A stretch of DNA of 64,000 bases from Janibacter sp. Soil728. Its GTDB lineage: Bacteria; Actinomycetota; Actinomycetes; Actinomycetales; Dermatophilaceae. The stretch spans positions 289-64,288 of the forward strand of contig NZ_LMRZ01000001.1 of NCBI RefSeq assembly GCF_001428305.1, written 5' to 3'. Shown in pieces: positions 5,419 to 46,221 of this stretch (position 1 is the stretch's first letter; the number at the start of each line of letters is the position of its first letter). Below the pieces are notes generated by a model. The model did no database searches, was not told the DNA's origin, and saw only the letters and a list, made by a program, of their open reading frames with translations. The position numbers and the translations under genes are program-made.

Positions 5419-6390
5419 CTACTTCTTGGGGGCCCAGAGCGTCTTGTTGACGTCCAGGTCAGCCTTGACGAGCTTCTGCTCCTTGAGGATGTCGACGGCC
5501 TTGGTGTACGACTCCGTGTTCATCTCGTCGTAGTACGTCGGCAGCGGCATGTCCTTGGCGACCGACTTGGGGAGCTTGGCGATGGTCGGGAGCCAGCTGC
5601 GCGCCTCGTCCTCGTTCTTGTTGAGGTCACCCCCCGCCTTGTACATCGCGCGGGCGAAGGCCGCCGCGGTGTCGGGGTTGGCGTCCAGGAACTTCTGGCT
5701 GGCCACGTAGGTCGAACCGGCCAGGCCCTTGTTGGGGCCGGCAGTGTTGTCGACGACCTCGCGCAGACCCGCGCTGCGGGCGCCCGACATGAAGGGCTCG
5801 GGCATGTAGCCGGCGTCGATGGACTTGGCCTTCACGCCGCTGATCATCTCGGGGAAGGGGACCTCGACCCACTTCGGCGTGACGTCGACGCCCTCGCTCT
5901 TGGCGAGGTTGTTGAAGGTGATGTCACCCATGTTCTTCGTCGTGTTGATGCCGATGGTCTTGCCGTCGAGGTCCTTGATGCCCTTGATCGAGGAGGCCTC
6001 GGGCACGAAGATCCCGATGCCGTTGTCGGCGAGCGCGCTCGTGAGCACGACCGAGCGGATCGGCAGGCCGGAGTCGACGGCCATGGCAGTGCCGAAGGGG
6101 GTGGAGTTGGTGAGGTCGAGCTCGCCCGAGACGACCTTCTGGACGCCGGCCGGTCCACCCTGCACGGGCTCGATGGTGACCTTGAGACCTTCCTTCTCGA
6201 AGAAGCCCTTCTCGTTCGCCCAGTAGAGGGCGGCGTAGTCGGTCAGCGGGAGTGACCCGACCTTGAGCTCCGTCTTCTCCAGCGTGCCGTCGGTCGCGGC
6301 CGCCGAACCATCGCTGTCGCCGCCACATCCGGCCAGTGCGAGGGCGATGCTCGCAGCTCCGGCCATGGCCAGCATGCGCGTTGCCTTCAT
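5419..6390 (-). CDS. ABC transporter substrate-binding lipoprotein (NMT1/SsuA-like), copy 1
   Basis: This 323-aa protein starts with a type II signal peptide ending in a lipobox (LALAGC, Cys22), so it should be anchored outside the membrane. The mature part matches the periplasmic-binding fold of the NMT1/SsuA/TauA family: KVGSLPLTDYAALYWANEKG, then QGGPAGVQKVVSGELD and FPEMISGVKAKSIDAGYMPE. It is the first gene of the transport operon, and a divergent 175-bp region with the shared 41-bp element separates it from the molybdenum hydroxylase. A close paralog lies at 11158-12123. Confidence 0.94.
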   Translation of the reverse strand: MKATRMLAMAGAASIALALAGCGGDSDGSAAATDGTLEKTELKVGSLPLTDYAALYWANEKGFFEKEGLKVTIEPVQGGPAGVQKVVSGELDLTNSTPFGTAMAVDSGLPIRSVVLTSALADNGIGIFVPEASSIKGIKDLDGKTIGINTTKNMGDITFNNLAKSEGVDVTPKWVEVPFPEMISGVKAKSIDAGYMPEPFMSGARSAGLREVVDNTAGPNKGLAGSTYVASQKFLDANPDTAAAFARAMYKAGGDLNKNEDEARSWLPTIAKLPKSVAKDMPLPTYYDEMNTESYTKAVDILKEQKLVKADLDVNKTLWAPKK

Positions 6391-11157: not shown

Positions 11158-12123
11158 TCAGTCGGCCGGCTGCCAGTAGACGTCGTTGACCTGCAGGTCC
11201 TTCTTGACCAGGTCCTGCTCCTTGAGGATGTCCAGCGCGCGCCCCAGACCCTCTTCGTCATAGGAGCCGTAGTAGGCGGGAAGCGGCATGCTGTTGGCCG
11301 TCTTCTTGTCCAGCTTGGCAAAGCTGGGCAGCCAGGCGCGCACCTCGTCCTCCTTCTTGGCCATGTCGGCACCAGCGGCGTACATGGCGTCGGAGAAGGC
11401 CTTGGTCGTGGCCGGGTTGTCCTTGACGAACTTCTCGCTCGACAGGTAGCTCGCCGCCGCCAGGCCGTCGTTGGGTCCCGTCGTGAGGTCGACGACCTTG
11501 CGCAGCCCCGCTCCCCGCGCCTGCGAGGCGAAGGGCTCGGGGAAGTAGCCGGCATCGATCGACTTGGCCTTGACCCCGCTGAGCATCTCGGGGAAGGGGA
11601 CCTCGACCCACTTCGGCGTCACGGACACGCCCTCGCTCTTGGCCTGGGCGCGGAAGGTGATGTCGCCGATGTTCTTGGTGGTGTTGGTCCCGATGGACGT
11701 GCCGTCGAGGTCCCCGAGGTCCTTGATCGGCGACCCGTCGAGGACGTAGATGCCCATCCCGTCCTCGGCCAGGGCGCTGGTGATGACCACTGCGCGGATC
11801 GGCAGGCCGGAGTCGTGTGCGGTCGCGGCGACGAATGCCGGCGAGTTGGTGAGGTCGAGATCACCCGAGACCACTCTTTGCACGCCGGCAGGGCCACCCT
11901 GGACCGTCTCGATCGTGACATCGAGCCCGGCGTCCTCGAAGAACCCCTTCTCGTCGGCCCAGTACAGGGCGGCGTAGTCGGCGAGTGGCAGGGAACCCAC
12001 CGTCAGCTCGGTCTTCTCGAGCTCACCGTCCGCGGACGCAGCTGACCCGCCCCCACCGCATGCAGATGCTCCGAGCGCCAAGCCGGCCGCCAGCGCGGTG
12101 CCCCAGAAGTGCCTCGTTCTCAT
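11158..12123 (-). CDS. ABC transporter substrate-binding lipoprotein (NMT1/SsuA-like), orphan copy 2
   Basis: This 321-aa paralog of the protein at 5419-6390 has a lipobox (LGASAC, Cys22) and nearly identical mature segments (KVGSLPL-type LTVGSLPLADYAALYWADEKG; FPEMLSGVKAKSIDAGYFPEP). It has no permease or ATPase of its own, so it probably feeds the transporter at 2940-5393 with a related solute or after a change in specificity. It is divergent from the NicC-like gene across a 129-bp region holding site B. Confidence 0.93.
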   Translation of the reverse strand: MRTRHFWGTALAAGLALGASACGGGGSAASADGELEKTELTVGSLPLADYAALYWADEKGFFEDAGLDVTIETVQGGPAGVQRVVSGDLDLTNSPAFVAATAHDSGLPIRAVVITSALAEDGMGIYVLDGSPIKDLGDLDGTSIGTNTTKNIGDITFRAQAKSEGVSVTPKWVEVPFPEMLSGVKAKSIDAGYFPEPFASQARGAGLRKVVDLTTGPNDGLAAASYLSSEKFVKDNPATTKAFSDAMYAAGADMAKKEDEVRAWLPSFAKLDKKTANSMPLPAYYGSYDEEGLGRALDILKEQDLVKKDLQVNDVYWQPAD

Positions 12124-15150: not shown

Positions 15151-15211
15151 GCGGCGAGGTTACCGACGCGATCGCCTGCCGGACAGGGTTTCGACGTCTA
15201 ACGTGGGTCAC

Positions 15212-15892
15212 ATGAGCGATGACGCCGAGGTCCTCACCAGCAACCAGGTCGACGAGCGCGCGCCGCGCGACTGGCGGGAGGTCGACGGGATGCTGCGCAC
15301 CCGGCTCAAGGTCGCGGACTACACCGCGGCGCTGGACCTGGTCACGCGCATCGCCCAGGCCGCCGACGCAGCCGATCACCACCCCGACATCGACCTGCGC
15401 TACAACTGGGTCGGCCTGCGCCTGGTCAGCCATGACGTGGGCGGGCTCAGCCCCCGCGACCTGGAGCTGGCTGGTGAGATCAGTCGGATCGCCGCCGACG
15501 TGGGCGCCGAGGCGCTCCCTGAGGTCACCACCTCGATGACGATCGGGATCGACACCGCTGACGCCGCCGCGATCCGTCCCTTCTGGATGGCCCTCACCGG
15601 CCACGACGAGGCGAAGGGGGATGCCAGCAGCCTCCCTTCGCCCGACGGGCAGCTGCCGGAGATCTGGTTCCAGGAGAGCGAGGCCCGCGAGTGCCGGGGC
15701 CGCGTGCACCTGGACGTGTACGTCCCCCACGACCAGGCCCTGAGCCGGGTGGAGGCGGTCGTCGCCGCGGGCGGGCGCCTCGTCACGGACGAGTTCGCCC
15801 CCTCCTGGTGGGTCCTCGCCGACGCCGACGGCAACGAGGCGTGCGTGTGCACCTGGCAGCCACACGGCGGGGACGCGCACCCGGCGGCGTGA
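15212..15892 (+). CDS. Pterin-4a-carbinolamine dehydratase / VOC domain fusion
   Basis: This 226-aa protein has an N-terminal PCD-like domain (residues about 5-95, active-site-like HHPDIDLRYNWV) followed by a VOC/glyoxalase-like domain (about 105-215, ending WWVLADADGNEACVCTWQ). PCD recycles the oxidised pterin cofactor of aromatic amino acid hydroxylases. No pterin-dependent hydroxylase is visible here, so its substrate is open. ATG at 15212 is favoured because translation from earlier starts would run into the divergent promoter. There is no clear operon partner; the lipoprotein array begins 47 bp later. Confidence 0.85.
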   Translation: MSDDAEVLTSNQVDERAPRDWREVDGMLRTRLKVADYTAALDLVTRIAQAADAADHHPDIDLRYNWVGLRLVSHDVGGLSPRDLELAGEISRIAADVGAEALPEVTTSMTIGIDTADAAAIRPFWMALTGHDEAKGDASSLPSPDGQLPEIWFQESEARECRGRVHLDVYVPHDQALSRVEAVVAAGGRLVTDEFAPSWWVLADADGNEACVCTWQPHGGDAHPAA

Positions 15893-15939: not shown

Positions 15940-16689
15940 ATGACGCGCCCCACCCGCCGCACCACCCGACTCCTCGTCCCCGTGGCCGCCGTCGTGGTCG
16001 CCGTCGGTCTGGCCGCCTGTGGCGGCACGGACGTCCCACCGCCGACCTCCCCGCCGAGCTCGTCGACGAGCGCGACCGACGAGGTCACGCCGGAGACGCT
16101 CGACCGGCCCGAGCAGCAGCAGGTCGATGCCGCGACCGCCAAGGCAGCGCTGCCCACGCTCGAGGACATGCCCGACGACGGCTGGGCCATCGACATCTCG
16201 ACCTTCGGCGACGACCCGGTCACCTACGACCCCGCCGTGTGCGCGGATGTCGAGCTCGACTCCCAGGAGGCACGCACCTTCGAGGACCAGCACCGCAAGG
16301 TCAACGAGGCGGCCCGCTTCAGCACGCCCCAGTCGCACGGCGGCCTCATCACCGCCACGTACGTCGAGAGCTTCGACGCGCCCTATCCCACCTCGCTCCT
16401 CGACGCCGCCGGGGAGCACGTCACCGACTGCGCCACCTACACCTGGACCAAGAACGCCAGCTCCAGCACCCGCCACGTCAAGGCCATCTCCGTCCCGGCG
16501 CTGGGCGACCGTTCCTTCGGGTTGCGCCTGTCGTCCGGCGAGTCCGAGTCCTACACCGATCGTCTCTACGTGCGCAGCGGGCACAACCTGATCACCGTCA
16601 TGACCCTCAGCAAGGAAGAGACGTACGACGGCACCCTCATGACGAAGTACGCCCAGGACATCCTCGACAAGCTCAAGAAGACGCCATGA
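15940..16689 (+). CDS. Secreted lipoprotein, array member 1 of 7
   Basis: This 249-aa protein has a lipoprotein signal peptide with the lipobox LAAC (Cys27) and a Pro/Ser/Thr linker. Its folded domain follows the array pattern: QQQVDAATAKAALPTLED, a Cys in YDPAVCADVEL, SLLDAAGEHVTDCATY, PALGDRSFGLRL and the RSGHNLITV motif near the end. The two core cysteines probably form a disulfide outside the cell. I do not recognise the family; PknH extracellular-type sensor domains are a possible distant relative. It is coupled to member 2 by an ATGA overlap. Confidence 0.82.
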   Translation: MTRPTRRTTRLLVPVAAVVVAVGLAACGGTDVPPPTSPPSSSTSATDEVTPETLDRPEQQQVDAATAKAALPTLEDMPDDGWAIDISTFGDDPVTYDPAVCADVELDSQEARTFEDQHRKVNEAARFSTPQSHGGLITATYVESFDAPYPTSLLDAAGEHVTDCATYTWTKNASSSTRHVKAISVPALGDRSFGLRLSSGESESYTDRLYVRSGHNLITVMTLSKEETYDGTLMTKYAQDILDKLKKTP

Positions 16690-17420
16690 GTCGCTCGAGG
16701 CGCAGCATCGCCCCCTTCGCCGTCGTCACCGCCCTGATCCTGATGACGGCTGCCTGCGGCGAGCCGACGGCGCCGTCGGAGTCGACGTCCAGCGTCGCCA
16801 CCAGCGAGCCGACGGCGTCCGAGGCCCTCGAGCGGCCCGAGCAGCAGCAGGTCGACGTGGCGACGGCCCGTGCCGCGCTGCCCACCCTCGAGGATCTGCC
16901 CAAGGGGTGGGTGGTCAACGAGAGCCCGGTCTCACACGCGGAGCGGACCTACGACCCACCGGAGTGCGCGGCCGTCGAGTTCCGCAGCGCCGAGGCGCAG
17001 ACCTTCAAGAAGGCCCATCTTGAGGTCGAGGAGCGCGTCGCCTACTCGGAGTGGACCCAGGGCGTCGCGGCGCAGCTCGCCGTCACCCTCTACTCCTTCT
17101 CCGAGCCGTTCCCCACCACGCTGCTCGACCAGGCCGGCGAGCGTCTCGGCGACTGCTCCGCCTACCAGCGCACCATCGATGGTGCGGCGCGGTCCTGGGC
17201 GACCCAGGCGCTCACCACGCCGACGGTCGGCGACCGCGCGCTGGGCATCCGGTACACCGCCGGCGCGGACGGGGCCGGCCGGGTCACCGACGAGCTGACG
17301 GTCCGCAGCGGCCACAACCTCGTCGTCGTCAAGTACCTGCCCACGACCACGACCTACGACGACCAGGCGCTCCAGGACTACGCCCAGGACGTCCTCGACC
17401 GCCTGGAGAAGGCATCATGA
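16686..17420 (+). CDS. Secreted lipoprotein, array member 2 of 7
   Basis: This 244-aa protein has its lipobox at TAAC (Cys24) and is closest to member 1 (shared RPEQQQVD, TARAALPTLEDLP). It carries the array marks YDPPECAAVEF, LLDQAGERLGDCSAY, PTVGDRALGIRY and VRSGHNLVVVKYL. Function is unknown; an extracellular binding or sensing role is inferred from lipid anchoring and the lack of any catalytic motif. It overlaps both neighbours by 4 bp (ATGA), so members 1-4 form one translationally coupled operon. Confidence 0.82.
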   Translation: MSRSRRSIAPFAVVTALILMTAACGEPTAPSESTSSVATSEPTASEALERPEQQQVDVATARAALPTLEDLPKGWVVNESPVSHAERTYDPPECAAVEFRSAEAQTFKKAHLEVEERVAYSEWTQGVAAQLAVTLYSFSEPFPTTLLDQAGERLGDCSAYQRTIDGAARSWATQALTTPTVGDRALGIRYTAGADGAGRVTDELTVRSGHNLVVVKYLPTTTTYDDQALQDYAQDVLDRLEKAS

Positions 17421-18157
17421 CGTCCATGAGCCGCCGGGTGCCCCCCTTCGCCGTCGTCGCCGCCCTGGGTCTGATGACGGCTGCGTGCGGTGGCGAGACC
17501 ACACCGCCCACCCCGTCGACGGTGACGGTCACGCAGACGCCCACGGAGCAGACGACGGGACCCGAGCGCCGCCAGCTCACGACCCAGCAGGTCACCGCGG
17601 CACTGCCGACCAAGGACGACGTCCCGGCCATCTTCCGACCGGACTCGCGCGGCTTCGACACCTCCTCGGTCAGCGAGCGCACCACCGACCCCGCCTCCTG
17701 CCTCGCGCTGTACATGGCCACGCCGGCACAACGCACCTTCACCAAGGAGCACCTCGTCGCCGACGGCGGGGTGCGCTTCAGCGAGGACCCGGACGAGCCG
17801 GGGTCGGCAAGCATCTCGGTCGGGATCCTCAGCTACGACGAGCCGTACCCCCGCGAGTACCTCGACGAGGCCGGCGCCGTGCTCGGCGAGTGCTCCACGT
17901 TCACCTCGCGCACCACACCGGACTCCGCCGAGGGGACGTGGCAGGCGACCACCATCTCGACCCCCACACTCGGCGACCAGAGCTTCGGCGTACGCATCGG
18001 CTCCCGCGACATCGACCTGGCCATCGACTACCTCTGGGTCCGCAGCGGCCACAACGTCGTGCACGTCCGCATGCTCACCGGTTACCGGCAGGACAACGGC
18101 GACCAGCTCAAGACGTCCGCCCAAGGCGTGCTCGACGACCTGGCCGCGACCCCATGA
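17417..18157 (+). CDS. Secreted lipoprotein, array member 3 of 7
   Basis: This 246-aa protein has its lipobox at TAAC (Cys24) and a signal peptide nearly the same as member 2 (PPFAVVAALGLMTAAC), which implies duplication of an adjacent gene. Array features are RRQLTTQQVTAALPTKDD, TDPASCLALYM, YLDEAGAVLGECSTF, PTLGDQSFGVRIGS and YLWVRSGHNVVHVRML. The last 80 residues are closest to member 4. Function is unknown. It starts at the ATG overlapping the stop of member 2. Confidence 0.82.
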   Translation: MTSMSRRVPPFAVVAALGLMTAACGGETTPPTPSTVTVTQTPTEQTTGPERRQLTTQQVTAALPTKDDVPAIFRPDSRGFDTSSVSERTTDPASCLALYMATPAQRTFTKEHLVADGGVRFSEDPDEPGSASISVGILSYDEPYPREYLDEAGAVLGECSTFTSRTTPDSAEGTWQATTISTPTLGDQSFGVRIGSRDIDLAIDYLWVRSGHNVVHVRMLTGYRQDNGDQLKTSAQGVLDDLAATP

Positions 18158-18888
18158 GGTCCGCCCGCCGTCTGGTGCCGCTCGTCACCGCTCTCGCCGT
18201 GGCCCTGCCCCTCGCCGCCTGCGGTGAGGACTCGCCACCCCCGTCCACCCCGACGGCGAGCGCCGCGACGACGTCGGCGCCGACCCCGTCGGAGGCCGAC
18301 GGTCCCGAGCAGCGACAGCTGACGGCCAAGGAGGTGACGGCCGCCCTGCCCGGCAAGGACGAGGGCCCCTACCCAGCCTCTGACCGTGAATTCGATCCAA
18401 ACGCGCGGAGCACGGCAGCGACCGACCCCGAGCCGTGCCTGGCGCTGGTGCTCGACACCCCCGAGATGCGCACCTTCAAGCAGGAGCACATGGTCGCCGG
18501 CGGCGGTCAGATCTACCTCCAGCCGCAGGACTTCGCCGCGCCGCAGATGGCGGTCATCCTGTGGAGCCACGACGAGGTCTACCCCAAGCGCTTCTTCGAC
18601 GAGGCGGGCGCCGCGCTCGCCGAGTGCACCACGCACGCCAGCGCGGACTCACCCGACGACGCGATGGGCGACGACTGGCAGGCCACGTCGATCCCGACGC
18701 CGGCGATGGGTGACCAGAGCTTCGGCGTGCGGATCGGGCGCGAGCAGTTCGACATGGCCATCGACTACCTGTGGGTGCGCAGCGGCCACAACCTCATCAC
18801 CGTGCGGATGCGCACCGGCTACACGCAGAGCAACGACAAGCGCCTGGCGAAGTACGCCCAGGGCGTCCTCGACGAGCTGGAGAAGTAG
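18154..18888 (+). CDS. Secreted lipoprotein, array member 4 of 7
   Basis: This 244-aa protein has its lipobox at LAAC (Cys23). It pairs with member 3 (shared RQLTAKEVTAALP, TDPEPCLALVL, GDQSFGVRIG, AIDYLWVRSGHN). The array marks FFDEAGAALAECTTH and ITVRMRTGY are present. The similarity of members 3 and 4, and of 1 and 2, suggests stepwise tandem duplication. It overlaps member 3 by ATGA and is followed by an 87-bp gap with a short hairpin, so it ends the first operon segment. Confidence 0.82.
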   Translation: MRSARRLVPLVTALAVALPLAACGEDSPPPSTPTASAATTSAPTPSEADGPEQRQLTAKEVTAALPGKDEGPYPASDREFDPNARSTAATDPEPCLALVLDTPEMRTFKQEHMVAGGGQIYLQPQDFAAPQMAVILWSHDEVYPKRFFDEAGAALAECTTHASADSPDDAMGDDWQATSIPTPAMGDQSFGVRIGREQFDMAIDYLWVRSGHNLITVRMRTGYTQSNDKRLAKYAQGVLDELEK

Positions 18889-18895
18889 CCCGACC

Positions 18896-18911
18896 GCTCC
18901 TCACAAGGAGC
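18896..18911. other. Short hairpin between lipoprotein members 4 and 5
   Basis: A 6-bp stem (GCTCCT/AGGAGC) with a CACA loop lies 7 bp after the stop of member 4. There is no T-run. It could be a weak attenuator that splits the array into two transcripts. Confidence 0.35.
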
Positions 18912-18975
18912 AATCTCACCCATCCTCGGCACACAGCGGCCCGTAGGCTTGTCTGCGGCCGACGAAGGGAATGAC

Positions 18976-19683
18976 ATGGGGTACCCCCGCACCGCGGTCC
19001 GCGGTCTCGCCACGCTCATCGGGCTGCTGCTCCTCGCCGGCTGCATACGCCCGTCCTTCGGTGGTGGCGACGCCCCGCCCGCCCCGGTCGGCGCCGGCCA
19101 GCTCAGCGAGGACCAGGTGCGCATGGCACTTCCCCGGGACGACCAGCTGCCGGAAGGCATCGAGGTCGACGACGACCAGACGGGCAGCGAGGCCGAGGCC
19201 AGCGACGAGGCCACCGCCTACCCGGCCAGCTGTCTCGACGTCCGCCTCGCGGGCACCGCGGGCAAGGCGCTCAAGGACCACCGGACGGCCCGGGTCAAGA
19301 AGTCCTTCGTGGGCGAGGAGGGCGGCTCGGTCAGCGTGACCGTCTCCTCCTACGACCAGCCCGTCCCTGCGCAGCTCTTCGACGATGCCGGAGCGGCCCA
19401 GAGCCAGTGCGGCACCTTCCAGCTCATCGACGAGTCGGGGACGTCCTCGTGGAAGCTGGACCAAGTCACCTTCCCCCAGATCGGTGACCGGACCTACTCC
19501 ACCCGCGTCCAGAGCACCACCGAGGGCGACATCTTCAAGGGCGGCGTCGTGCAGATCGCCGGCGCATCCAGGGGCCACAACCTCGTCTACGTCGTCTACG
19601 CCTCGGGTCCACGCTCCGACTACGACCCCACTGCCGTCGAGACCTTGACCAAGGCGACCATCGACAACCTGGACGCGCTGTGA
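18976..19683 (+). CDS. Secreted lipoprotein, array member 5 of 7
   Basis: This 235-aa protein has its lipobox at LAGC (Cys23). It is more divergent: QLSEDQVRMALPRDDQ, YPASCLDVRL, LFDDAGAAQSQCGTF, PQIGDRTYSTRV and ASRGHNLVYVVYA, so the GHN motif is kept while the preceding Ser is lost. ATG 18976 is chosen because a gaaggga ribosome site precedes it; an in-frame GTG at 18949 has no such site. It begins the second coupled segment of the array. Function is unknown. Confidence 0.8.
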   Translation: MGYPRTAVRGLATLIGLLLLAGCIRPSFGGGDAPPAPVGAGQLSEDQVRMALPRDDQLPEGIEVDDDQTGSEAEASDEATAYPASCLDVRLAGTAGKALKDHRTARVKKSFVGEEGGSVSVTVSSYDQPVPAQLFDDAGAAQSQCGTFQLIDESGTSSWKLDQVTFPQIGDRTYSTRVQSTTEGDIFKGGVVQIAGASRGHNLVYVVYASGPRSDYDPTAVETLTKATIDNLDAL

Positions 19684-20444
19684 GGACCATCGTGCGCACC
19701 GGTGCCGTGGCGGCCGCGCTCGCGCTGCCTCTCGCCGGGTGCGGGCTGCTCCCCCAGGCCGCGCCCTCCGGCTCATCGACCTCCCCGCCGACCTCCCAGG
19801 GCGCCGCCGACCAGTCCGGCGAGGACCTCGGCACGCTCACCGGTGCCGGCCGACCTCTGGACGAAGGGGGCCTGCGCGCCGCGCTGCCAGCGCCAGCCGA
19901 CCTCGGGGACGGGTGGGAGGACGACCCCATGAAGACCATCTTCGAGACGGCCGGTGCCGATGTCACCCCCGCCACGTGCGCACCCCTGCTGCAGAAGGGG
20001 CCGGAGTGGGAAGAGGCCAAGAAGTCCCAGAGGGCCCGCGTCCAGACCAACCTCAAGCGCAGCGACAACCCACCGCCCCCGGGCACCGAGCGCCACTTCC
20101 TCGGCGTCTGGGCCTACTCCTTCGACGACCCGTACCCGGTCCACCTCTTCGACGAGGCAGGGGCGCGCATCGCCGACTGCCCGAACTTCGACGTCCGACA
20201 GGTCGACACGGGTTCGACGAGCTCCTACGCGGCCTCGCCCCTCAGCTTCCCCACACTCGGCGACCGCACCTTCGCGCTGCGGATGCAGGTGCAGCAGACC
20301 TACGAGACCTTCACGATCGACTTCGTCATGATCAAGATCGGGCACAACACCATCTCCGTCGCCAACAGCACCTACAACGGGACTCCGGACGCAGCGGTCA
20401 CCGAGAAGGCCGCCCGCGCGGCGCTGGCCGGGCTGGAGGAGTAG
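19680..20444 (+). CDS. Secreted lipoprotein, array member 6 of 7
   Basis: This 254-aa protein starts at a GTG overlapping the stop of member 5 by 4 bp. Its lipobox is LAGC (Cys21). It is the most divergent copy: GGLRAALPAPADLGDGW, VTPATCAPLLQ, LFDEAGARIADCPNF, PTLGDRTFALRM and MIKIGHNTISV. Only the GHN core of the final motif remains. It contains a proline run (DNPPPPGTE) absent from other members. Function is unknown. Confidence 0.78.
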   Translation: MRTIVRTGAVAAALALPLAGCGLLPQAAPSGSSTSPPTSQGAADQSGEDLGTLTGAGRPLDEGGLRAALPAPADLGDGWEDDPMKTIFETAGADVTPATCAPLLQKGPEWEEAKKSQRARVQTNLKRSDNPPPPGTERHFLGVWAYSFDDPYPVHLFDEAGARIADCPNFDVRQVDTGSTSSYAASPLSFPTLGDRTFALRMQVQQTYETFTIDFVMIKIGHNTISVANSTYNGTPDAAVTEKAARAALAGLEE

Positions 20445-20447
20445 CTG

Positions 20448-21191
20448 ATGAACCGACCTCACGTCACGGCCACCGCAGCCCTCGTCGTGGCGCTGACCGC
20501 TGGGCTCACCGGGTGCACCACCCCCTTCGGCAGCGATGACCCGAGCACGTCGCAGACCACGACGCCGACGCCCGCCTCGCCGTCCACCCCCGCCGACAGC
20601 GGTCGGGGCAGGCAGCTGAGCGAGCAGGAGGCCACTGCGGCCCTGCCCACCCGGCCCACGGGCGCCAAGAACGTGGCGGCGCAGAGCGCCCCCGAAGGTC
20701 GCGCGACCGACCCGGCGGAGTGCCTCGACATCCTGCGCGCCGGCCCCGAGGGCGATGCCCTGCGCCAGGTGCGGGTCGCCCACGCCGAGCGCACCTGGTC
20801 CACCCAGGACCCGGCGACGAGCTACAGCTTCGAGATCGACTCCTACTCCCGTCCGGTCGGCCCCGCCCTGCTCGACCGGTCGGGCGCCGCGATGAGCAGC
20901 TGCTCCACCTTCTCGCTCACGGGCGAGGACTCCGCCGGGCACTTCGACCTGCGGGTCATCGCCGAGCCCCGGACGGTCCCGACCATCGGTGAGCAGAACT
21001 ACGGCGCCCGGCTCATCACCTTCGACCAGGTCGACGGCAAGAGCGTGCGGGTCTACATGGACTACATCGTCGTGCGCGCGGGTCACAACCTCGTCGCCGT
21101 CACCAGCGTGCACCGCGACGAGGACCGCGGGCGGGACGAGCTCGAGACCCATGCCGAGGAGATCCTGCAGGACCTGCAGGACAGCGCCTGA
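20448..21191 (+). CDS. Secreted lipoprotein, array member 7 of 7
   Basis: This 247-aa protein has its lipobox at LTGC (Cys23) and a long Thr/Pro/Ser linker. Array features are RQLSEQEATAALPTRP, TDPAECLDILR, LLDRSGAAMSSCSTF, PTIGEQNYGARL and VVRAGHNLVAVTSV. It starts 3 bp after member 6, so it is co-transcribed. No enzyme, transporter or regulator is interspersed anywhere in the array, and the next gene is a cytoplasmic-type transglutaminase/DUF2126 protein. Confidence 0.8.
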   Translation: MNRPHVTATAALVVALTAGLTGCTTPFGSDDPSTSQTTTPTPASPSTPADSGRGRQLSEQEATAALPTRPTGAKNVAAQSAPEGRATDPAECLDILRAGPEGDALRQVRVAHAERTWSTQDPATSYSFEIDSYSRPVGPALLDRSGAAMSSCSTFSLTGEDSAGHFDLRVIAEPRTVPTIGEQNYGARLITFDQVDGKSVRVYMDYIVVRAGHNLVAVTSVHRDEDRGRDELETHAEEILQDLQDSA

Positions 21192-21281: not shown

Positions 21282-24200
21282 GTGACCATCCGTGTAGCCC
21301 TCGAGCACCGCACCTCCTACGAGTTCGCGGAGCCCACCCACGTCTACCCGCACACGATCAGGCTGCGCCCCGCACCCCACTCGCGCACGCCGATCCCCAG
21401 CTACTCGCTGCGGATCGAGCCGCCGGAGCACTTCCTCAACTGGCAGCAGGACCCCTTCGGCAACTGGCTGGCGCGGGTCGTCTTCCCCGACAAGGTCTCC
21501 CGGCTCGAGATCACCGTCGACCTCACGGCGGACATGACGGTCATCAACCCCTTCGACTTCTTCGTCGAGGACTGGGCGTCGACCTTCCCCTTCGCCTACC
21601 CCGAGCAGACGCGCGTCGACCTGGCGCCCTACCTGCAGCCCGTCGACGACGGCGGCGAAGGGAGCGGCCCGGCCCCCGAGGTCAGCGCCTGGCTGGAGCG
21701 GACCCTCCCTTCGCTCCTGACGGCACCGCGTGACGCGGCGGTCGGCGAGGGCACGCGCATCGTCGACTTCATCGTCGGGCTCAACCGGGCCATCCGGGAG
21801 AGCGTCGACTACACGGTCCGCCTCGAGGCCGGCGTCCAGACGCCGCAGCACACCCTCGAGCGGGGCATCGGCTCCTGCCGCGACAGCGCGTGGCTGCTCG
21901 TCTCGGCGATGCGCCAGCTCGGGCTCGCCGCCCGCTTCGTCTCGGGCTACCTCGTCCAGCTGACCTCGGACCTCAGTGCGGTCGGCGATGACAGCCTCAA
22001 CGGCCCGACGGAGGACTTCACCGACCTGCACGCGTGGGCCGAGGTCTACATCCCCGGCGCCGGGTGGGTCGGGCTCGACGCGACCTCCGGGCTGCTGTGC
22101 GGCGAGGGCCACATCCCCCTCTCGTGCACCCCCCACCCTGCCTCCGCCGCCCCGATCAGCGGCGCGACGGCACCGGCCGAGGTCACCTTCGACTTCTCCA
22201 ACACCGTGACCCGCTTCGCCGAGGACCCGCGCGTCACCAAGCCGGTCACCGACGAGCAGTGGGCCGACATCACGACGCTCGGCGAGGCCGTCGACGACCT
22301 GCTGGCGAAGGGGGACGTCCGCCTGACGATGGGCGGCGAGCCGACCTTCGTCGCGGCCGGCGGCACCAAGGACCCGCAGTGGCACACCGCCGCCGACGGC
22401 GAGCAGAAGCGCGAGCTGGCGATGGCCCTCGCCCGCCGTCTGTCCGGGCCCGGCACCCTGCGCCACCACGGCCAGGGCAAGTGGTACCCGGGCGAGCCGC
22501 TGCCCCGCTGGCAGATCGGGCTCGCGGAGCGCACCGACGGCCAGCCGCTCTGGCGCGACCCCGACCTGCTCGACGACCCGTGGGGTCCCGAGCGCGAGGA
22601 CTCCACCTCTGCCGAGGCCGCCGACGCGGCCCGCGGCCTGGCGCTGGGCATCGCCCGCCGTACCGGCATCCCCGTCGAGCAGCTCGTCGCTGCCGTCGAG
22701 GACCCGCTGCAGCAGCTCGCGCAGGAGGCCCGTCGCCCCGCCGGTGAGGCGCCCACCCCCGGCGATCTGGCCCCCGATGCCGAGGACGCGTCCGACGAGG
22801 CCAAGCGCGCCGCCGCACTGGCGCGCATCGACGCCGAGGTCGACCCGGACACCCCGGCCGCCTGGGTGCTCCCGATCTTCCCCGCACCTGACGGTGAGGG
22901 CTGGGCGACGACGACCTGGCGCACCCGCCGTGGGTTCCTCGCGCTCGTCCCCGGGGACTCCCCCGCCGGCCTGCGCCTGCCCCTGTCCTCCATCGCCTGG
23001 TCGGAGGGACCGATCACGCCGGAGCGATCCCCCTTCGCCCCGCGCGGAGCGCTCCCGGCCGTCGACCCGAGCACCCTCGGTGAGGTCGACACCGCCCCCG
23101 CCCGGGTCCTGCCGATCGAGGAGTCCCCGCGCACGGCACTGGCCGTGCAGCACCGCGGGGGGCATCTCTTCGTCTTCCTCCCGCCGGTCGAGGACTTCGA
23201 GGACGCCCTGGCGCTCGTGACCGCCGTCGAGGGGGCCGCCGCCGAGATCGGCCATCCCGTGGTCCTCGAGGGCTACCCCCTGCCCGGCGACGACCGGGTC
23301 CGCACGATGTCGGTGACGCCCGACCCCGGCGTCATCGAGGTCAATGTCTCGCCGACCGCGTCCTGGGGCGAGCTCGTCGCGCAGTCCGAGAGCCTCTACG
23401 AGCACGCGCGCCAGATCCACCTGTCGACCGAGAAGTTCGACCTCGACGGCTCCCACACCGGCACGGGCGGCGGCAACCACCTCACGCTCGGCGGGGTGAC
23501 GGCTGCCGACAGCCCGATGCTGCGCCGACCCGACCTGCTGCGCTCGCTGATCACCTACTGGCAGCACCACCCGGCGCTCAGCTACCTCTTCTCGGGCCGC
23601 TTCATCGGCCCGACCTCGCAGGCGCCGCGCGTCGACGAGGGGCGCGCCGAGTCGCTCTACGAGCTCGAGATCGCCTTCTCCCAGCTCGACCACGTCATCG
23701 CGATGGAGCACGACGCGTCCGCGATCACCGAGCCGCTCGACGAGACCTACCGACCCAAGCAGCACACCCGCCCCTGGCTGGCCGACCGGCTGCTGCGCCA
23801 CCTGCTGACCGACATCACGGGCAACACCCACCGGTCGGAGTTCTGCATCGACAAGCTCTTCGCCCCCGGGACCGAGCGGGGCCGGCTGGGACTGCTCGAG
23901 ATGCGCGGCTTCGAGATGCCGCCGCACCCGCGGATGGGTCTGCTGCAGGCGCTGCTCGTGCGGGCGCTCGTCGCCCGCTTCTGGGACGAGCCCTACACCG
24001 GGCCGCTCGTGCACTGGGGCACCCGGCTGCACGACCGCTACCTCCTGCCCGCCTTCGTCGCCGCCGACCTGCGCGACGTCCTCGACGACCTCAACGGCTA
24101 CCTGGAGCGTGTCGGGGCCGGACGGATGGACCCGGCGTGGTTCGACGCCTTCCTCGAGTTCCGGTTCCCGCGCCTGGGTGACACGACGATCGCCGGGGTC

Positions 24201-24899
24201 GAGCTGGAGCTGCGCTCGGCCATCGAGCCGTGGCACGTCCTCGGCGAGGAGGTCAGCCAGTTCGGCACCGCACGCTATGTCGACAGCTCCGTGGAGAAGG
24301 TGCAGGTCCGCGCCGTCGGCCTCGTCGAGGGCCGGCACGTCATCACGTGCAACGGCGTCCCCGTGCCGATGGTCCCCGTGGCCGAGCAGGGCTGGGGTGG
24401 TCCCGTCGGGGCGAAGGGGAGCACCGGCGCCTTCGTCGGCGGCGTCCGCTACCGCGCCTGGGCTCCCCCGTCGGCCCTGCACCCGACGATCGGCGTGCAC
24501 GGTCCGCTGACCTTCGACCTCGTCGACCGGTGGTCGGGGCGCTCCCTCGGCGGCTTCACCCACCACGTCACCCACCCGGGGGGCGTGGCCTACGACAGCT
24601 TCCCCGTCAACGCCGCGTCCGCGGAGTCGCGTCGGGCAGCTCGGTTCGTCGCCGGCGATCACACCCCCGGACCGATCGACCTGTCGACCCTGCCCGACCC
24701 GCGCTCCGGGCTGGGCCCGGCCGTCACCGACTACCCGGTGACGCTCGACCTGCGCCGGTTCCCCGGGACCGACCGGATGCCGGGGACGGAGGACGAGTTC
24801 GCCATCCCCCCGACCGAGACGCTCGATGCGGGCATGCCGCCCGCAGACGGGGTGACGGTCGTGGAGACGAGCGCCGAGGGGGCCGTGCCCCCGGCCTGA
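21282..24899 (+). CDS. Transglutaminase-like / DUF2126 protein
   Basis: This 1205-aa protein starts at GTG 21282. Residues 1-120 form a bacterial transglutaminase N-terminal domain (HRTSYEFAEPTHVYPHTIRL). A transglutaminase core follows with Cys in GIGSCRDSAWLL (about 199), His in DLHAWAEVY (about 250) and Asp in GLDATSGLL (about 265). The rest (about 290-1190) is the DUF2126 region typical of this long fusion, including RLTMGGEPTFVAAGG, LGGVTAADSPMLRRPD and IGNT-like GNTHRSEFCIDKLF. Such proteins are usually found with a circularly permuted ATP-grasp partner in peptide-modification operons. No such partner is next to it here. Confidence 0.9.
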   Translation: MTIRVALEHRTSYEFAEPTHVYPHTIRLRPAPHSRTPIPSYSLRIEPPEHFLNWQQDPFGNWLARVVFPDKVSRLEITVDLTADMTVINPFDFFVEDWASTFPFAYPEQTRVDLAPYLQPVDDGGEGSGPAPEVSAWLERTLPSLLTAPRDAAVGEGTRIVDFIVGLNRAIRESVDYTVRLEAGVQTPQHTLERGIGSCRDSAWLLVSAMRQLGLAARFVSGYLVQLTSDLSAVGDDSLNGPTEDFTDLHAWAEVYIPGAGWVGLDATSGLLCGEGHIPLSCTPHPASAAPISGATAPAEVTFDFSNTVTRFAEDPRVTKPVTDEQWADITTLGEAVDDLLAKGDVRLTMGGEPTFVAAGGTKDPQWHTAADGEQKRELAMALARRLSGPGTLRHHGQGKWYPGEPLPRWQIGLAERTDGQPLWRDPDLLDDPWGPEREDSTSAEAADAARGLALGIARRTGIPVEQLVAAVEDPLQQLAQEARRPAGEAPTPGDLAPDAEDASDEAKRAAALARIDAEVDPDTPAAWVLPIFPAPDGEGWATTTWRTRRGFLALVPGDSPAGLRLPLSSIAWSEGPITPERSPFAPRGALPAVDPSTLGEVDTAPARVLPIEESPRTALAVQHRGGHLFVFLPPVEDFEDALALVTAVEGAAAEIGHPVVLEGYPLPGDDRVRTMSVTPDPGVIEVNVSPTASWGELVAQSESLYEHARQIHLSTEKFDLDGSHTGTGGGNHLTLGGVTAADSPMLRRPDLLRSLITYWQHHPALSYLFSGRFIGPTSQAPRVDEGRAESLYELEIAFSQLDHVIAMEHDASAITEPLDETYRPKQHTRPWLADRLLRHLLTDITGNTHRSEFCIDKLFAPGTERGRLGLLEMRGFEMPPHPRMGLLQALLVRALVARFWDEPYTGPLVHWGTRLHDRYLLPAFVAADLRDVLDDLNGYLERVGAGRMDPAWFDAFLEFRFPRLGDTTIAGVELELRSAIEPWHVLGEEVSQFGTARYVDSSVEKVQVRAVGLVEGRHVITCNGVPVPMVPVAEQGWGGPVGAKGSTGAFVGGVRYRAWAPPSALHPTIGVHGPLTFDLVDRWSGRSLGGFTHHVTHPGGVAYDSFPVNAASAESRRAARFVAGDHTPGPIDLSTLPDPRSGLGPAVTDYPVTLDLRRFPGTDRMPGTEDEFAIPPTETLDAGMPPADGVTVVETSAEGAVPPA

Positions 24900-43905: not shown

Positions 43906-44191
43906 GAAGGGGTGCTCCAGACGGAGTCATGATGCTTCGGTTCTGCCCGGCGCGGGTCCGTCCTGCGGAAGGCAGGGGTATCGCGGCGCGATGGCATCGT
44001 TGCAAAAAGAGAAGCAGCGCACTGCAGAACTGGGCGGCTGCTTCGTCAAGTGTAGCGGGCGAAGGGGGGGGCCTTGACCACACTGCCCAGCAGCATCTAG
44101 GCGCGGCTGCTCAGTCCCATCAGCACTCAACGGAGGGCGCCCACGGGACAGGGCGCTCCTTTGCCTGACTGTTCATCTCCAGCGCAGATGA
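43906..44191. other. Intergenic region between helicase and defence island
   Basis: No gene is seen. On the minus strand TACACT (44055-44050) is a candidate -10 box for the helicase and would leave a leader of about 140 nt with a small hairpin (CCTGC/GCAGG near 43970). An 8-G run lies at 44064-44071. A bulged hairpin at 44132-44159 (GCGCCC/GGGCGC core) followed by CTTT may be a terminator. This gap marks the left edge of the lower-GC segment. Confidence 0.4.
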
Positions 44192-45148
44192 TCACGAAAC
44201 CGAGTGACGCTTCTCCGGACTCTTCCGTCGCCGCTTTGCAGCCTTCACGCTTGCGGCTGACCCGCTTGGCAGAGATCGCAAATCCCCGATCTGACTCTCC
44301 ACGAATTCCAACAAGTCCGACCACTCAGGCCACACTCTAGGGTCACCGCCCCCCAACGACTCCAGCAACCTACCCCTGTCCATGGTGACCGATACTTCAT
44401 TTGTAATGTCATGCCACCAATTGTCACCTAAAGGAACGACGAAGGGTATAGCGAAGCCCACACTTGGTTGCGCCCCCACGGCTAGCCAAGTATGCCACCG
44501 CACAGCAGAAACGTCGCGAGGCTTCATTCTAAAATCTTGCTTTATGGTGTTCTGTACAAGAAAAATTGGAAAGCCAGTGCGAGAATCCGTAAAAGGCTTC
44601 CAAACAATTACGTCGACCCCGGCATCTTGGTAATGACTAGGTATCGAATCGAAGTTCCGCAGAGAAACTCCCATCTGCTCAGCCGCCCAAGAGACAGCCT
44701 TCGGAAAGTCTGTTGGACGCCCCGACCTAGGGGGCCAAGCAAAAATAAGGGCCTTAGCCCTAGCGCCTTGGTGCGCCCTGAAGGCTTCGCGAACCACAGC
44801 ATCAAACAGTGAGTCTGCATCGCCATACCGGGCCGCCCTGCGAAACTCGGTCCCACGCATCGAAAGAAGGAGAAGGAGGGCGTACAGTTGAAACTCTCCA
44901 GCCCTGTCTATGCGGACACCTCGGCCGTCAAGCGAGAAGGGGTAATGCTTACCAAACTCCCTCCCTCGCCGCTCGATCTCGGCGAATGCGAACGCAAAAT
45001 CCTCATCCGCTGGCTGTCGCCCCACGGCAAACATCCCACTCAACTCACTTTGCGAAAGGTGCTCGTCTTCTGACGCGAGCAACTCACACTCAATAAATTC
45101 GGCCATCGCGTACGGATCAAAGTCTGACGGCGGCTCCACCCACGTCAT
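44192..45148 (-). CDS. Putative nuclease-like protein of a two-gene defence-type operon
   Basis: This 318-aa protein is partly recognisable. Residues about 175-205 (DAGVDVIVWKPF, then FPIFLVQNTIKQDF) look like a restriction-endonuclease-fold core of the 'GVD...W...QCxTGK' type, where D179 and Q199 would be the metal-site residues and the usual QCATGK is altered to QNTIKQ. A helical N-terminal part and a basic tail (KAAKRRRKSPEKR) flank it. Its start overlaps the ParB-like gene stop by 4 bp. The DNA is visibly AT-richer than neighbours (runs such as aaaatcttgctttatgg), a sign of transfer. Confidence 0.68.
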   Translation of the reverse strand: MTWVEPPSDFDPYAMAEFIECELLASEDEHLSQSELSGMFAVGRQPADEDFAFAFAEIERRGREFGKHYPFSLDGRGVRIDRAGEFQLYALLLLLSMRGTEFRRAARYGDADSLFDAVVREAFRAHQGARAKALIFAWPPRSGRPTDFPKAVSWAAEQMGVSLRNFDSIPSHYQDAGVDVIVWKPFTDSRTGFPIFLVQNTIKQDFRMKPRDVSAVRWHTWLAVGAQPSVGFAIPFVVPLGDNWWHDITNEVSVTMDRGRLLESLGGGDPRVWPEWSDLLEFVESQIGDLRSLPSGSAASVKAAKRRRKSPEKRHSVS

Positions 45149-46221
45149 CGCTCGCCACCCTGGGGATACAGCTCAGCAAGTATTTGCGCCACGCCCTGCA
45201 AATCAGAGATCGCGACGAGAGTCGCGTCATCGACGGCCGAGGGCTCAAGGCGCACAGCCCTCGTCGCTTGACGGAGGGAGCGATTAATCATGCGGGCAAA
45301 CTGCTGGTCTATATCCTGAGTCGACTCAAGCGCCTCAACTAGGTCCAGCGTCTCTCGCAGCACGGCCAGAGCCCGGCCGCTTTCGTCAGCGAAAACCTTT
45401 GCCAAGTCGCCGAGTTGCCTTGAGTCTGCAATAACTCGCCCCTCACCGCGCCTATCGCCGAATATCAGCGTGAATAGTTCGGCGAGGCTGCCCTCAGCAT
45501 CGTCGGCAAGTGGCCAAAATTCTGTATCTACATCGCGCGGATCCGGCGCCCCAATATGCTTCCTGATGGCAGGACGCCCCATAGCATTGTTGAACACACC
45601 AAAGGCATCGCGAACTCGGCGGGTATCCAACCCCATTTCATCCGCTTGGCGCAAAACCTCATAGTCACGATACTTAGAGGCAATTTCTGTCCTCTTACGC
45701 CCGACCAGGTCGGCGACTTCATCCAATGAATTTCCGTCACGATTCACCAACTGAGCGATAAACCGAGCTTGTGCGTAGGGGTCCCACGGTTCAATACCAG
45801 AAATGTGGCGGTACCCCAATAGTGCAGCCACGTCTTTCGGCTGAGACACCAAGAGGACAGGTATCATCTGGGGAACTCCACCCCCCTCAAGCGCCGCCCA
45901 CCGGTGATTCTCGATAGCGAACTCTTCACGAAGCCGGGAGTCCGACAGGCCCATGAGTGCGGTTAATCGCCGATTGCCCTCAATGACGACGTAAACGTCG
46001 CCCCGAGCCACGGCAATCAGTGGCTCACTCTCGAAGAAACGGTGTTCTTCGATTGACTCTGCAATTCTGAGTGGGTCGAAATGCTTGTTAATAAATATCG
46101 CAAGAGCTCGCTGATCACTCAGGCCGAGGTCCAAATCTGGAGGGAGTCGCGGATTGTCGGGATCTAGCCGAAGATCGGCTAGCGGAAGGGGCACAACCGC
46201 CTGAGCGTCAACGGAACTCAC
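45145..46221 (-). CDS. ParB-like N-terminal domain protein
   Basis: This 358-aa protein has a ParB/sulfiredoxin-type domain: LPLADLRLDPDNPR, then SEPLIAVARGDVYVVIEGNRRLTALMG-type core with the ExNRRxxAL motif (residues 81-89). A KorB-like helix-turn-helix follows (LDEVADLVGRKRTEIASKYRDY, near 165-185), then a helical C-terminus. No ParA is nearby, so it is not a partition gene. It is paired with the nuclease-like gene. GTG 46221 sits 6 bp after a TATATT box. Codon use is less GC-biased than in the flanking genes. Confidence 0.82.
   Translation of the reverse strand: MSSVDAQAVVPLPLADLRLDPDNPRLPPDLDLGLSDQRALAIFINKHFDPLRIAESIEEHRFFESEPLIAVARGDVYVVIEGNRRLTALMGLSDSRLREEFAIENHRWAALEGGGVPQMIPVLLVSQPKDVAALLGYRHISGIEPWDPYAQARFIAQLVNRDGNSLDEVADLVGRKRTEIASKYRDYEVLRQADEMGLDTRRVRDAFGVFNNAMGRPAIRKHIGAPDPRDVDTEFWPLADDAEGSLAELFTLIFGDRRGEGRVIADSRQLGDLAKVFADESGRALAVLRETLDLVEALESTQDIDQQFARMINRSLRQATRAVRLEPSAVDDATLVAISDLQGVAQILAELYPQGGER

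What the first reader, a model, noticed from the sequence alone, without database searches (positions are those of the whole stretch)
15940..21191. Seven tandem paralogous lipoproteins with a conserved GHN motif
Seven adjacent genes encode lipid-anchored proteins of about 235-254 aa with the same plan: lipobox, Thr/Pro/Ser linker, an AALP helix, two core cysteines (near DPxxC and xxC-T/N-F), a LGD/IGD turn and a terminal GHN motif. Identity falls from members 1-4 to 5-7, showing old and repeated duplication. No enzyme or transporter is embedded. Such an expanded surface family may be a diversified receptor, sensor or inhibitor set and appears undescribed.
Basis: partly seen in the sequence, partly recalled or inferred. 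Interest (0 to 1): 0.75.

Follow-up and report, generated by a model that had tools for sequence, protein, structure and literature searches.

The report
Tandem PknH-sensor-like lipoprotein array
A Janibacter bacterium carries seven side-by-side genes for lipid-anchored outer proteins that are predicted to share the shape of the sensing domain of the kinase PknH, and relatives of this domain sit on membrane proteases elsewhere, so the array is probably a set of surface binding proteins rather than a wholly unknown kind.

Summary
Seven co-directional genes at 15940-21191 encode paralogous lipoproteins (235-254 aa), far above chance. The genome is a Janibacter. Arrays of 5-9 copies are in 10 of 16 Janibacter genomes, at one fixed slot wherever both flanks were seen; paralogous arrays probably predate the genus.

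New: in seven genomes of another actinobacterial family the same domain ends BlaR1-like multi-pass M48 metallopeptidases, a second receptor-like architecture. Most likely the array is a set of lipid-anchored extracytoplasmic ligand-binding proteins. Ligand and partner are unknown. Average selection is purifying, though weaker than on flanking genes.

The parts
15940..16689 (+). W1, lipoprotein 249 aa, lipid Cys 27, PknH-sensor-like domain (fold inferred from W3 and W6)
   Evidence: W1-type orthologues in 8 of 10 Janibacter arrays
16686..17420 (+). W2, lipoprotein 244 aa; clear orthologue only in the J. anophelis array among 10 arrays
17417..18157 (+). W3, lipoprotein 246 aa (alternative start 17426, 243 aa); domain 17558-18154 was folded
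18154..18888 (+). W4, lipoprotein 244 aa, closest paralogue of W3 (54%)
18976..19683 (+). W5, lipoprotein 235 aa; orthologues in 10 of 10 arrays
19680..20444 (+). W6, lipoprotein 254 aa (GTG start); domain 19836-20441 was folded
20448..21191 (+). W7, lipoprotein 247 aa; highest dN of the members compared with G012 and with J. limosus
   Evidence: orthologues in 7 of 10 arrays
15209..15892 (+). Left border of the slot: pterin-4a-carbinolamine dehydratase / glyoxalase-like fusion; 47 bp before W1
   Evidence: Pfam; border in 8 of 8 relatives' arrays with both flanks in the fetched stretch, with one extra gene in between in four of them
21282..24899 (+). Right border of the slot: transglutaminase-like / DUF2126 fusion, 1205 aa
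   Evidence: Pfam; border in 8 of 8

Best explanation
The array encodes seven lipid-anchored extracytoplasmic proteins, each with one PknH-sensor-like domain: a mixed alpha/beta domain with one conserved Cys pair. It is a locally duplicated branch of an actinobacterial family that uses this domain as an outside recognition module. The same fold forms the outer end of PknH-type kinases (known) and of polytopic M48 metallopeptidases (found here). In the array the domain is free of any cytoplasmic output part, so each lipoprotein most likely binds a small molecule, lipid or cell-wall fragment at the outer face of the membrane and presents it to, or competes for it with, a membrane partner. Duplication and divergence would have given the paralogues different specificities. 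Shown by computation: paralogy, predicted lipidation, predicted fold (two of seven modelled), shared Cys pair, fixed slot with changing copy number, domain fusions. Inferred: ligand binding, the nature of the ligand, the partner, and different specificities.
Against: No ligand, partner or phenotype is known. The genes examined next to the array are metabolic or uncharacterised enzymes with no evident receptor role, and no other copy was found in the own genome at E <= 0.001. The second PknH Cys pair is missing and identity to PknH is only 10-15%, so a shared cleft function is not assured. Six of 16 Janibacter genomes have no array and three of them no member at all at E <= 0.001, so the function is dispensable. 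No sigma-70-type promoter or terminator was seen, and co-transcription is only inferred from overlaps. Most relatives outside Janibacter are single lipoproteins, not receptors.
Confidence: 0.6

Rival explanations
1. TiME-like assembly: the paralogues build homo- or hetero-oligomeric rings or tubes in the envelope that pass nutrients or proteins.
Against: TiME needs its retained N-terminal helix to form a pore, whereas these proteins have lipoboxes; Janibacter is not known to have a mycolate outer membrane (recalled, not tested); array size is 5-9, not constant.
Confidence: 0.1
2. Lipid or envelope-assembly carriers: the domain shuttles lipids or helps envelope assembly, like LpqN or other Mog1/PsbP-like proteins.
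Against: These matches are far below PknH/TiME and in the range common for unrelated folds; LpqN sequence matches cover signal peptide and linker only.
Confidence: 0.15
3. Surface decoys or receptors under an arms race (phage or competitor), diversified by selection.
For: Higher dN/dS (0.27-0.59) than three flanking genes (0.08-0.20) for window vs G012; W7 against J. limosus reaches 0.76 (domain part 0.89); the short W1 signal peptide gives 2.56 over about 24 codons; gain and loss of W1-W4-type copies.
Against: Whole-gene orthologue values stay under 1 in all 18 orthologue comparisons made; no PADLOC match at E <= 0.01 for any of the seven; W5 and W6 orthologues are kept in nearly every array.
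Confidence: 0.1
4. Relics: a tandem array kept by drift, with no specific function.
For: Six of 16 Janibacter genomes have no array; a dispersed single copy is in two fragments in G014.
Against: All seven window genes are intact, orthologue dN/dS is under 1, and the same orthologue groups persist across the genus and partly in a sister genus.
Confidence: 0.05

Closest known systems
PknH extracellular sensor domain (PDB 4ESQ; Pfam PF14032 PknH_C; the domain is also in mycobacterial lipoproteins LpqQ, LprH, LppH, LpqA according to PMC4118811)
   Different: 10-15% identity, below the Pfam cut-off, no second Cys pair, GHN turn aligned to the stretch before the fourth PknH Cys, P-x-GD motif, no kinase, tandem array
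TiME, tube-forming protein in the mycobacterial envelope (PDB 7cu8, 7cu9; Rv3705c)
   Different: Lipid anchor instead of a retained helix; ring formation untested; 8-14% identity
Rv0999-type protein (PDB 4tmd)
   Different: Titled 'putative uncharacterized protein'; 9-14% identity
BlaR1/MecR1-type M56 receptors and M48 membrane peptidases
   Same: Relatives of this domain form the C-terminal end of M48 (weakly M56-like) polytopic peptidases
   Different: The window's proteins carry no peptidase; the sensor of BlaR1 is a penicillin-binding domain (recalled), not this fold
LpqN / Mog1 / PsbP-like proteins
   Different: Far weaker match; a shared Cys pair was not tested

Membership tests
PknH_C (PF14032) | Score over the curated gathering cut-off (27 bits) | tested here: not met
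   Of the seven only W3 is listed, 17.3 bits, E 0.0046; 5 of 62 members of A2 at E <= 0.1, best 4e-5. The own-genome search gave 0 matches, but its control genomes gave none either
PknH_C (PF14032) | PknH sensor fold | tested here: met
   Predicted models of W3 and W6, two of seven
PknH_C (PF14032) | First Cys pair | tested here: met
   25 of 25 PknH_C and 112 and 113 of 113 in the wide set; 7 of 7 in the window. That the pair is bonded is inferred
PknH_C (PF14032) | Second Cys pair (two disulfides in PknH) | tested here: not met
   20 of 25 PknH_C; no further column with Cys in 20% or more of the 113 wide rows. The fold is shared, but I do not file these as PknH_C members
PknH_C (PF14032) | Significant profile relation | tested here: met
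   hhalign E 2.5e-4, probability 43% (Janibacter alone), E 1.6e-7, probability 94% (wide), both above all 60 column-shuffles; E 1.4e-6, probability 90%
PknH receptor kinases | Fused Ser/Thr kinase | tested here: not met
   Seven stand-alone lipoproteins; the only 7 matches in the own genome at E <= 0.001 are the array
TiME | Ring or tube assembly | not testable with these tools
   No complex prediction available
TiME | Retained N-terminal helix needed for the pore | tested here: not met
   A lipobox is predicted in 7 of 7, so the signal helix should be cut off; cleavage itself is not shown
M48/M56 receptor peptidases | HExxH peptidase in the same chain | tested here: not met
   No peptidase match in the window proteins; present in 7 fused relatives
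LppX/LprG lipid-binding lipoproteins | LppX/LprG fold | tested here: inconclusive
   Not among the rows shown, which does not exclude it
LpqN / Mog1 / PsbP-like | Fold | tested here: inconclusive
Known anti-phage defence proteins | PADLOC model match | tested here: not met
   0 of 7 at E <= 0.01

The most novel reading that the evidence does not exclude
The PknH-sensor fold is a general actinobacterial recognition module plugged into three outputs: kinases (PknH), membrane M48 proteases (found here) and free lipoproteins. All would recognise one class of envelope ligand, and the Janibacter array would be a repertoire of ligand variants of that class. The unknown ligand of PknH could then be sought in harmless bacteria.
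Probability: 0.3. Interest if true: 0.7.

Novelty: new variant of a known kind. Interest (0 to 1): 0.5.

Why it matters
The ligand of the PknH sensor domain was described as unknown in the 2012 review whose passages I read. A large, unnamed relative branch outside mycobacteria, present as tandem lipoproteins and as the C-terminal end of membrane metallopeptidases, gives harmless systems in which the ligand and the signalling logic of this fold can be tested. It also marks a family that the Pfam and NCBIfam models used here miss.

Tried and rejected
Curated models: no Pfam or NCBIfam hit over cut-off for any of the seven. NCBIfam and PDB sequence hits lay mostly on signal peptide and linker, the rest at chance level, and were discarded; phmmer of W3's domain against the PDB gave nothing at E <= 10. 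A1, which includes the signal peptide, matched unrelated lipoproteins by signal and linker, so counts use the mature-domain alignment A4. Kinase fusion: 10 long ORFs of relatives scanned with Pfam gave one M48 peptidase and no kinase. Of the ten long-frame loci fetched later, four had no M48 match (G839, G849, G844, G877); other long frames (for example in G854 and G865) were not read. BlaI-type repressor beside the M48 fusions: five upstream ORFs had no Pfam family over cut-off. Overall positive selection: not found, but NG86 on GC-rich codons is rough. A TiME ring-contact comparison was considered but not run. A hetero-ring argument from the number seven was dropped, since array size varies. 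LppX and LprG are absent from the structural rows shown, which proves nothing.

Rows dropped: A2 (62 rows) left out all rows of the MAG G015, the two G014 fragments and the rows without an automatic lipobox call. The tree (72 rows) restored the MAG rows and two of the latter, but left out the MAG copy cut at the contig end, the G014 fragments and the weak relatives outside the array (E > 1e-30). A4 and A5 left out the cut MAG copy. Of one search's nine 'no lipobox' rows, two are cut pieces of the window's own genes, three look like lipoboxes missed by my rule, one is the M48 fusion, two are secreted without a Cys and one is unclear; 9 of its 74 rows are window genes or pieces of them.
Full report
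WHAT IS THERE. Seven genes run head to tail on the + strand from 15940 to 21191. Genes 1-4 overlap their neighbours by 4 bases, as do 5-6; 87 bp separate 4 and 5, and 3 bp separate 6 and 7. Each protein has a signal peptide with a lipobox, a low-complexity Thr/Pro/Ser linker (short in W5) and one domain of about 200 residues. The proteins are real paralogues: leave-one-out profile scores are 108-198 bits against at most 9.5 bits for 500 shuffles each. At DNA level, parts of W1-W4 keep 62-132 bp stretches of 63-78% identity at a spacing of 728-737 bp, one gene length, as expected for tandem duplication of whole genes.

WHERE IT COMES FROM. A scan of named genomes returned six loci, all Janibacter: J. 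limosus, J. anophelis, J. indicus, J. hoylei, J. terrae and a Janibacter MAG.

A FIXED SLOT WITH CHANGING COPY NUMBER. With the mature-domain alignment A4, 10 of 16 Janibacter genomes (window included) hold an array: 7 in the window, 9 in J. limosus, 8 in J. anophelis, 6 in G012 and J. hoylei, 5 in J. terrae, J. indicus, G009 and G002, and 7 matches in the MAG, whose contig ends cut the array. Three of 16 (G005, G007, G014) hold only a dispersed copy, in two fragments in G014, and three of 16 (G001, G003, G013) have no match at E <= 0.001. G012 and J. anophelis have the dispersed copy as well. In 8 of 8 relatives' arrays with both flanks in the fetched stretch, the array lies between the same two genes, a pterin dehydratase/glyoxalase fusion and a transglutaminase/DUF2126 fusion; in four of the eight a divergent Tat-type lipoprotein gene lies between the first of these and the array. 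In G005, G007, G013 and G014 that slot is 1.3-1.8 kb long without a family member; in G003 it is 18 bp, though only part of the right-hand gene matches there; G001 has another arrangement.

HISTORY. The tree of 72 rows gives orthologue groups. W5-type copies are in 10 of 10 arrays, W6-type in 9 of 10, W7-type in 7 of 10, W1-type in 8 of 10, and W2 only in the window and J. anophelis. W3/W4-type copies come and go. A sister genus (G181) has a six-gene array; single members of it join the W6 and W7 groups with starred support, but on long branches, and its rows do not form one side of any branch. That the paralogues predate the genus is likely, not proven. Between the window and G012, dN/dS is 0.27-0.59 for six orthologue pairs, against 0.08, 0.14 and 0.20 for three flanking genes (NG86, rough for such GC-rich codons). 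Over all 18 orthologue comparisons the whole-gene value runs from 0.10 to 0.76; the highest is W7 against J. limosus, whose domain part reaches 0.89, and the short W1 signal peptide gives 2.56 against G012. I read this as relaxed purifying selection without overall positive selection; site-wise selection is not excluded.

SEQUENCE SUPPORT. I collected 25 PknH_C domains from three genomes of one genus (3 of 119 phylum genomes had any). Their profile A7 retrieves 4ESQ, 7cu8 and 7cu9 and nothing else from the PDB at E <= 0.01. Profile-profile comparison aligns the Janibacter family with them over 154 columns, collinear (score 31.8, E 2.5e-4, probability only 43%). With relatives added (113 rows) the score is 49.3, E 1.6e-7, probability 94%; the best of 60 column-shuffles reached 16.7 (Janibacter) and 13.0 (wide), and reversed profiles 10-11. 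The tool's own comparison of A6 and A7 gives probability 90%, E 1.4e-6. The first Cys pair is in 25 of 25 PknH_C and in 112 and 113 of 113 rows here; the second pair is in 20 of 25 PknH_C, and no further column has Cys in 20% or more of the rows here. So this is a separate branch of the PknH/TiME fold. I do not file it as a PF14032 member.

THE GHN MOTIF. In both models GHN lies at the turn between the last two long strands (W3 strands 154-163 and 166-174, G164 and N166; W6 strands 158-168 and 171-180, G169 and N171). In the wide set the Gly is kept at 96%, His at 60% and Asn at 62%. It is best read as a turn signature, not as a catalytic or metal site.

HOW WIDE THE FAMILY IS. Outside Janibacter, matches are patchy: 20 of 149 genomes of the bacterial family, eight of them Janibacter, 29 of 296 of the class, and with the wider profile A6 22 of 396 of the phylum at E <= 1e-7. 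All three counts include the window's own genome, and all are lower bounds, because only the best few candidates per genome were scored. Single genomes have up to six matches (G386). My rule calls a lipobox in 65 of 74 ORF rows; without the nine rows from the window's own genes it is 58 of 65.

A SECOND RECEPTOR-LIKE ARCHITECTURE. In one relative (G369) the domain ends a multi-pass membrane protein with HELAH and a Pfam M48 match. A search of 81 genomes of that bacterial family found matches in 47. I fetched ten loci with long frames, not all there were. Six have HELAH, several TM-like segments, a Pro-rich linker and then this domain; M48 is over the Pfam cut-off in all six, so 7 of 7 with G369; M56 (BlaR1) matches in two of the seven, under its cut-off. 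The other four of the ten show no M48. The six domains score 54-88 bits with the Janibacter-only profile. A recurring fusion in several genera speaks for one protein, not for two frames read together. The outside position of the domain is inferred from its lipoprotein relatives and the Cys pair; TM counts are from simple hydropathy and frames were read from stop to stop.

HOW IT MOST LIKELY WORKS. Two quite different membrane proteins, PknH kinases and M48 peptidases, carry this fold at the end expected to face outwards. PknH's sensor has a large cleft whose conservation suggested a small-molecule ligand, unknown at the time of the review (PMC3601408, passages). I therefore take the array to be a set of lipid-anchored binding proteins with the recognition part but no output part. 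They would bind envelope or environmental molecules and present them to, or keep them from, a membrane partner. The ligand, the partner and the division of labour are inferences. The TiME relation leaves open ring or tube assembly (PMC11434571, passages), which I hold less likely because these proteins are predicted to be lipid-anchored and array size varies.

WHAT IS IN PRINT. Searches for Janibacter lipoproteins in tandem, for TiME/Rv3705c/Rv0999, for PknH sensor and PknH-like lipoproteins, for PF14032 and PknH_C, for Intrasporangiaceae lipoprotein paralogues, for tandem lipoprotein families, and for BlaR1/M48 sensor fusions listed no paper that I recognised as being about this branch (listings only, some capped, open-access library). 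The original PknH structure paper was not held.

Noticed in passing
L275:757-1452, L276:689-1138, L277:600-1055, L278:1104-1685, L280:684-1196: A conserved small ORF (149-231 codons, stop to stop) overlaps or directly precedes the M48-fusion frame in five loci, and a similar one is at L165; no Pfam family over cut-off in the five. Possible cytoplasmic partner of the receptor peptidase.
   Followed up: partly
L054, L055, L057, L058 (between array and pterin-dehydratase gene); L160:11955-12509; L215:7549-8400: A Tat-type lipoprotein gene adjoins the array in four Janibacter genomes and in the sister-genus array, and is found without an array in G001. No Pfam match in the two tested. tblastn found none in the window.
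   Followed up: partly
window 44001-46000: G+C falls to 57% against about 64-72% in the neighbouring 2-kb steps; possible foreign insert.
   Followed up: no
window 5419-6390 and 11158-12123: Two similar substrate-binding lipoproteins of an ABC-transporter type, with xanthine-dehydrogenase-like genes between them (judged by eye from the ORF list).
   Followed up: no
G004, G007, G013: The transglutaminase/DUF2126 gene matches in two pieces in three genomes; frame break or insertion not examined.
   Followed up: no
L061 (G014:C1:1166615-1167387): The dispersed single copy of the family is in two fragments in this genome, while unbroken frames exist in four relatives (G005, G007, G011, G012).
   Followed up: partly
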